DNA from: Proteinivorax tanatarense
GTDB lineage: Bacteria; Bacillota; Proteinivoracia; Proteinivoracales; Proteinivoracaceae
Direction: 5' to 3'
Length of the DNA stretch: 64,000 nucleotides
Assembly: GCF_040267685.1 (NCBI RefSeq)
Contig: NZ_CP158367.1
Coordinates: 1,426,001-1,490,000, forward strand
In this document: in pieces, positions 37,570 to 38,314 of the stretch
Numbering within the stretch: the first letter of the stretch is position 1
Layout of the letters: each line of letters begins with the position of its first letter
Notes under the pieces: model-generated
Databases searched by the model: none
Seen by the model: only the letters and a program-made list of their open reading frames with translations
Told to the model about the DNA's origin: nothing
Translations under genes and position numbers: made by a program

Positions 37570-37577
37570 AAACAAAA

Positions 37578-37616
37578 GGAGCTACTGGCAAGATACAAGC
37601 CAGTAGCTCCTTTGTT
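37578..37616 (+). terminator. Strong terminator, apparent insertion site of the intron-like RNA
   Basis: A perfect 12-bp stem (GGAGCTACTGGC with GCCAGTAGCTCC) followed by TTTGTT. Group IIC introns characteristically insert right after such terminators, and the intron-like sequence starts at the next base. Confidence 0.9.
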
Positions 37617-38205
37617 GTGTGCCAACATATGTTTTAAATTGGCGGTGAAAGTCCGCTGTGCGCTTGGTAGTGTGGGACCACTAGCAGAAGGCAAGGCCGA
37701 ATCTGAAGAAAGCCCTAGCAAAAATCCCGGTTTAAGGAATACAAATCACATACACTCAAAACAAGGTCCAAAACTCGAATCCTAGGGAGTAAATGTGGCA
37801 GAAATATGGGAGGAAAGATTGTCCATGCAGTTAAGTGTGAGGCTTAAGCAGACAGCAAAAACTTATAGTGCCAAGTGATGTATATGCCTTGAGAATGGTA
37901 GAGTTAATGCGTTAACTGGCCACGAAACGTCGTTATTTGCTCTTCTGCTGGACAATCTGTATTTGAAACTAGATTTGATTCTGGGACTGTAAGGATCTTT
38001 ACGCTCTCTATTTTACATAAGGAGATAGTTAGTCAAATAGTTAGCTATATTCTATACTCATCAAGCATGTAGCTTGGTTATACGTTTTTGTGGCTAATCT
38101 AAGCACTTAATTTTTTATTTAAGGTAGAACCAGAAGGAAACCCTAGGCAAAACTCTGGACGAGGGAATTTTGTATAGGGGTTTAAAAACAGATCACTTTG
38201 AAATA
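37617..38205 (+). ncRNA. Degenerate group IIC intron-like RNA without ORF
   Basis: This fills most of the 745-base gap between the stress-like gene and dpaA. It begins GTGTGCC (group II 5' consensus GUGYG). Then, in order, come GGTGAAAGTCC (37646), GCAAGG..GAATCTGAAGAAAGC (37691-37713), AAAACAAGGTCC (37758), GAGTAAATGTGGCAGA (about 37787), GGAGGAAAGATTG (37809) and CAGACAGCAAAAACTTATAGTGCC-type (about 37850-37873). Order and spacing match the O. iheyensis group IIC intron as I recall it. No reverse transcriptase ORF and no GAAA-capped domain V are found, so splicing is unlikely. The 3' boundary is approximate. Confidence 0.65.
38131..38170 (+). repeat. Second copy of a group II domain I motif
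   Basis: CAGAAGGAAACCCTAGGCAA plus the next 20 bases closely parallels 37703-37742 (CTGAAGAAAGCCCTAGCAAA...). Apart from the main intron-like segment, this suggests a second relic or an internal duplication. Confidence 0.5.
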
Positions 38206-38314
38206 CCTAGATTTTAATAATGATAAGACAATAGCCCGGTTACACTAAATAATTTTATAATTTTTTGTGTCTTTTACTATACAAATATCATATGTTATAA
38301 CAGAGGTGATTTAA
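38206..38314. other. AT-rich gap before dpaA
   Basis: No ORF or clear RNA structure. CATATGTTA at 38289-38297 resembles the -10 of mother-cell sigma-E/K promoters, but no matching -35 is seen and it lies very close to the dpaA RBS. Confidence 0.4.

What the first reader, a model, noticed from the sequence alone, without database searches (positions are those of the whole stretch)
37617..38205. ORF-less group IIC intron-like RNA placed exactly after a transcription terminator, upstream of the dipicolinate operon
The only long gene-free stretch starts with GTGTGCC on the base right after a perfect terminator stem plus TTTGTT, the known insertion preference of bacterial class C group II introns. 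At least six intron domain I-III motifs follow in correct order and spacing. No reverse transcriptase and no recognisable domain V occur before dpaA, so it seems unable to splice by itself. Either it is a decaying relic or the domain I scaffold has been kept as a structured RNA next to a sporulation operon. The motif comparison is made from memory of the O. iheyensis intron.
Basis: partly seen in the sequence, partly recalled or inferred. Interest (0 to 1): 0.78.

Follow-up and report, generated by a model that had tools for sequence, protein, structure and literature searches.

The report
Dead intron carrying a repeat hairpin
The stretch is the decayed remains of a group IIC self-splicing intron that jumped in just behind a transcription terminator; it carries in its middle a palindromic repeat that rode along with the same intron to at least nine other terminators in this genome, and nothing suggests that it serves the neighbouring spore gene.

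Summary
A group IIC intron 5' end begins on the base after a terminator; Rfam group-II-D1D4-3 hits 37698-37823 (35.3 bits, cutoff 32) and domain III is detectable. Domain V/VI and reverse transcriptase (RT) are absent; the whole genome has no RT gene. The tail holds a second domain I fragment, a scar of tandem duplication.

Genome-wide the hairpin has 70 matches at about 25 loci, often as tandem [domain III + hairpin] arrays. Ten loci show terminator, intron head, hairpin; five show domain V/VI remnants behind the hairpin. A sister species has terminator and dpaA but an empty site. So this is a relic, not a kept sporulation RNA.

The hairpin is an independent repeat family. Each of three genomes carrying it has a GxxExxY (nuclease-like) gene inside such an array; GxxExxY genes elsewhere often have flanking inverted repeats. 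Best model: an ORF-less palindrome entered domain IV of a IIC intron once, was spread by retrohoming, then the RT was lost and copies decayed.

The parts
37575..37616 (+). intrinsic terminator of the upstream gene (15-bp perfect stem, loop AAGATACAA, tail TTTGTT), the insertion target
   Evidence: ortholog without insert in G001
37617..37823 (+). group IIC intron 5' end and domain I, decayed
   Evidence: RF02001 35.3 bits; domain I HMM 1.6e-36; head HMM 7e-19
37824..37852 (+). probable domain II remnant
   Evidence: position between domain I and III only; no model hit
37853..37902 (+). domain III remnant
   Evidence: local alignment to intact intron L088, better than all of 300 shuffles
37903..38118 (+). 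palindromic repeat unit in the domain IV position (outer stem 37918-37931 / 38082-38095), decayed copy
   Evidence: unit HMM 96.8 bits; fold -46.6 kcal/mol
38122..38164 (+). second domain I fragment (domain I positions 93-135), scar of a tandem duplication
   Evidence: HMM E 4.5e-4; weak RF02001 hit 18.1 bits
38165..38257 (+). unrecognisable 3' part of the insert; domain V/VI and IEP not detectable
   Evidence: boundary from the empty site

Best explanation
The region is a dead group IIC intron insertion. Shown: a IIC intron integrated right behind the terminator in this lineage only; a palindromic, ORF-less repeat unit sits in its domain IV position. Inferred: the unit entered domain IV of one ancestral intron, just behind domain III, and this composite intron was retrohomed, with RT supplied in trans or by a since-lost ORF, to many terminators of the genome. 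The RT was then lost; copies lost middle parts of domain I, the ORF and mostly domains V/VI, while palindromes in several copies were amplified in tandem. The palindrome itself belongs to an inverted-repeat family associated with GxxExxY (PD-(D/E)XK nuclease-like) genes. It has no dedicated role for dpaA.
For: RF02001 and head hits. Intact relatives: L085-L087 (ORF-less, domain V/VI intact) and L088 (1.9 kb with a 472-aa RT + maturase), all behind terminators. Ten loci show terminator, significant head, hairpin; a strict terminator test is passed by 12 of 15 heads against 0.3% of random positions. Domain III directly before the hairpin in window, L016, L024, L025, L020. Domain V/VI remnants behind it in L019, L020, L026, L027 (p 0.005, the floor) and L104 (0.015); an IEP 3' remnant in L027 and, by eye, L019. 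No RT in the genome. Empty site in G001.
Against: The window copy itself has no detectable domain V/VI, so its own 3' end is inferred from other copies. Some hairpin loci show no intron trace (L028, L029, L099, L100, L103, L105, L108). Spread as a composite could be replaced by repeated insertion at one preferred site. That so many copies keep 50-80 nt of the intron head is not obviously explained by neutral decay, though the loci were partly found by that head.
Confidence: 0.8

Rival explanations
1. A retained structured RNA: the domain I scaffold plus hairpin was domesticated and acts on the dipicolinate operon, for instance as a leader or antiterminator.
For: Domain I to III order is still readable and it lies next to dpaA; the outer stem of the hairpin still pairs.
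Against: Absent at the same place in G001, G002 and G004 with the operon intact; domain I pairing is broken; the same element sits behind unrelated genes elsewhere; the alignment of 19 hairpin units shows almost no compensatory changes.
Confidence: 0.06
2. The hairpins are the mobile agent: a palindromic element inserts repeatedly and independently into one preferred site of already dead introns.
For: Hairpins exist outside introns and in G002 without introns; the family has a linked nuclease-like gene.
Against: The same junction directly behind domain III recurs at several loci, in one orientation, and no target duplication was seen.
Confidence: 0.13
3. Another large RNA (OLE or similar) or chance resemblance to a group II intron.
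For: None found.
Against: No OLE hit; strong similarity of head and domain I to intact introns of relatives.
Confidence: 0.01

Closest known systems
Bacterial class C (IIC) group II introns, including ORF-less copies
   Same: 5' end, domain I, domain III, insertion right behind an intrinsic terminator (preference reported in PMC8919778)
   Different: domain V/VI not recognisable, no RT in the genome, a palindromic repeat in the domain IV position, partial internal tandem duplication
Composite group II introns: twintrons and the tandem C. tetani intron (general knowledge, not tested here; McNeil 2014 is cited in PMC8919778)
   Same: an intron that carries foreign or duplicated parts
   Different: here the passenger is an ORF-less palindrome and the repeated part is domain III plus the domain IV hairpin
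MITE-like or REP-like palindromic repeats of bacteria (general knowledge)
   Same: short, ORF-less, terminal inverted repeats, many copies, tandem arrays
   Different: 200-340 nt, two or more rung repeats per arm, linked to a GxxExxY gene rather than a known transposase

Membership tests
group IIC intron (functional) | insertion directly behind an intrinsic terminator | tested here: met
   (perfect stem; tail TTTGTT fails a strict four-T rule)
group IIC intron (functional) | 5' end GUGYG and domain I | tested here: met
   RF02001 35.3 bits; domain I HMM 1.6e-36; head E 7e-19
group IIC intron (functional) | domain III | tested here: met
   better than all 300 shuffles; no Rfam hit for it in the window
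group IIC intron (functional) | catalytic domain V and domain VI at the 3' end | tested here: not met
group IIC intron (functional) | RT/maturase in the intron or in the genome | tested here: not met
   no PF00078 in the genome; only a 112-aa maturase remnant at L034
OLE RNA (RF01071) | match to the covariance model | tested here: not met
GxxExxY-linked inverted-repeat element (not a named family) | palindromic unit of the family present | tested here: met
   96.8 bits
GxxExxY-linked inverted-repeat element (not a named family) | GxxExxY gene in the same array | tested here: not met
   not in the window copy; the genome's only such gene is in array L017
GxxExxY-linked inverted-repeat element (not a named family) | mobility of the palindrome on its own | not testable with these tools
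   needs experiment or strain pairs

The most novel reading that the evidence does not exclude
GxxExxY PD-(D/E)XK nuclease-like genes and rung-type inverted repeats form an undescribed kind of small mobile element; its ORF-less palindromes used domain IV of a IIC intron as a vehicle, so that one selfish element hitchhiked to the safe sites behind terminators.
Probability: 0.4. Interest if true: 0.7.

Novelty: new variant of a known kind. Interest (0 to 1): 0.47.

Why it matters
It sets aside the sporulation-RNA idea and replaces it with a clear history: a composite retroelement with a palindromic passenger in domain IV, spread behind terminators and then fossilised together with loss of its RT. 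It also makes a question testable: the function of GxxExxY proteins is not known (from general knowledge; no study of it was found in the library), and here they are tied to inverted-repeat arrays in three genomes and to flanking inverted repeats in further phyla, which suggests that they are mobile-element proteins.

Tried and rejected
Covariation of the hairpin: arms are conserved by sequence with hardly any double changes, so no support for structure under selection. Pattern scan CAGCATGTAGCTNNTTTATACG over 84,980 species genomes and viral contigs: none, with the caveat that the genus itself may be left out. Plasmids: no copy of the unit. Naming the organism by dpaA failed; it is unnamed here, and Natranaerobius-like is only a guess from memory. 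Literature: no paper found on GxxExxY with inverted repeats or on such domain IV passengers; the library is open-access only. OLE and other large RNAs: no Rfam support.

Full report
Observation. The stretch 37570-38314 is the longest ORF-free gap of the window. It begins with a perfect 15-bp terminator stem and GTTGTGTGCC. Rfam finds group-II-D1D4-3 at 37698-37823 with 35.3 bits over a cutoff of 32, and no other family; OLE and domain V (RF00029) give nothing. A second, weak domain I hit lies at 38114-38180, and a domain I HMM supports it at 38122-38164.

Relatives. Other genomes of the family hold intact introns of the same kind: three ORF-less ones of 464-653 nt with clean domain V/VI in the same genus (L085, L086, L087) and one of 1.9 kb in another genus with a 472-aa RT plus maturase (L088), all behind terminators. 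The window's genome has no RT gene at all, and its only near-threshold domain V is attached to a 112-aa maturase remnant.

The middle part. BLAST of the region against its own genome gives 58 matches, many in regular tandem arrays. The repeated part is a hairpin unit of 200-340 nt with ends GTCAAAACNTTAATTGGCCACGAAAACGT and the inverse, with 70 matches in about 25 loci. In the window it spans 37903-38118 and is a decayed copy (96.8 bits; most full-length copies of the family in this genome reach about 190-267). Folding gives one long stem with a recurring internal loop.

Position inside the intron. In the intact intron L088 the order is domain III, RT gene, domain V. In the window and at L016, L024, L025 and L020 the hairpin follows directly on a domain III match (p 0.003 to 0.02, best of two queries, 19 places tested). 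Behind the hairpin, domain V/VI remnants are found at L019, L020, L026 and L027 (p at the floor of 0.005) and L104 (0.015), and an IEP 3' remnant at L027; L019 also reads as one by eye. With 57 tests about one hit at 0.015 is expected by chance, so L104 (and L016, same p) are weaker. The hairpin is therefore most simply read as a passenger of domain IV.

Spread. Twelve loci carry significant intron heads; ten are followed by the hairpin, two (L022, L023) are not. Of 15 heads, three of them weak, 12 pass a strict terminator test that 0.3% of random positions pass; the window and L017 have strong stems and fail only for lack of four consecutive T, L023 has no clear terminator. In several arrays the repeated unit is domain III plus hairpin.

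The dpaA site. In the sister species G001 the same terminator is followed within about 85 nt by dpaA, without insert; homology resumes in the window near 38258. G002 and G004 have none either. The insert is a gain of this lineage and the operon does without it elsewhere. With the broken pairing of domain I and the duplication scar this favours a relic.

What the hairpin is. It also occurs outside introns, and a different genus (G002) has about 40 matches to its own subfamily, none seen in an intron in the stretches read. The single GxxExxY gene (PF13366, TIGR04256) of G000 lies inside hairpin array L017, that of G001 inside another, and two of six in G002 inside arrays. In 18 GxxExxY loci, including plasmids of Bacteroides and Bernardetia and one other Firmicute, eight have inverted repeats flanking the gene that beat all shuffles, against none of 60 control places; several arms share CCAC(A/G)GA-like motifs. 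In Sphingomonas the gene sits between fabD and fabG. That this is a mobile element is inference.

Verdict. A relic of a group IIC intron with a palindromic passenger. Shown: intron origin, terminator-abutting insertion, hairpin behind domain III, empty site in relatives, lack of RT. Inferred: single entry of the palindrome, spread by retrohoming, and the nature of the GxxExxY-linked family.

Noticed in passing
L017:4911-5276 (G000 C1:1683925-1684266): The genome's only GxxExxY (PDDEXK_3) gene lies inside a tandem hairpin array; the same holds in G001 (L146) and for two of six genes in G002 (L148, L150).
   Followed up: partly
L154:1440-1975; also L163, L164, L151, L153: GxxExxY genes of unrelated bacteria are flanked by inverted repeats built of short rung repeats (for example CCACAGATNNACACAGAT, CACCACAGAGGACACAGAG); 8 of 18 against 0 of 60 controls.
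   Followed up: partly
G002 C1:165-230 kb (L139-L142): About ten separate hairpin arrays crowd into one 65-kb part of the chromosome.
   Followed up: no
L098 and L109 (G002), several G000 loci: Many intron relics keep just the first 50-90 nt behind the terminator; whether this is bias of the search or something selected is open.
   Followed up: no
L090:9590-11245: An IS3-like element with two ORFs is inserted in the middle of a hairpin unit in G001.
   Followed up: no
L100, L093, L103: Some arrays are interleaved with another repeat of the type GTCATCCTGAG..GAAGGATCTAGCCCACAAGGGCG.
   Followed up: no
L152:1-1458: In G002 another GxxExxY gene adjoins an unrelated tandem array of 254-bp units at 98-99% identity.
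   Followed up: no
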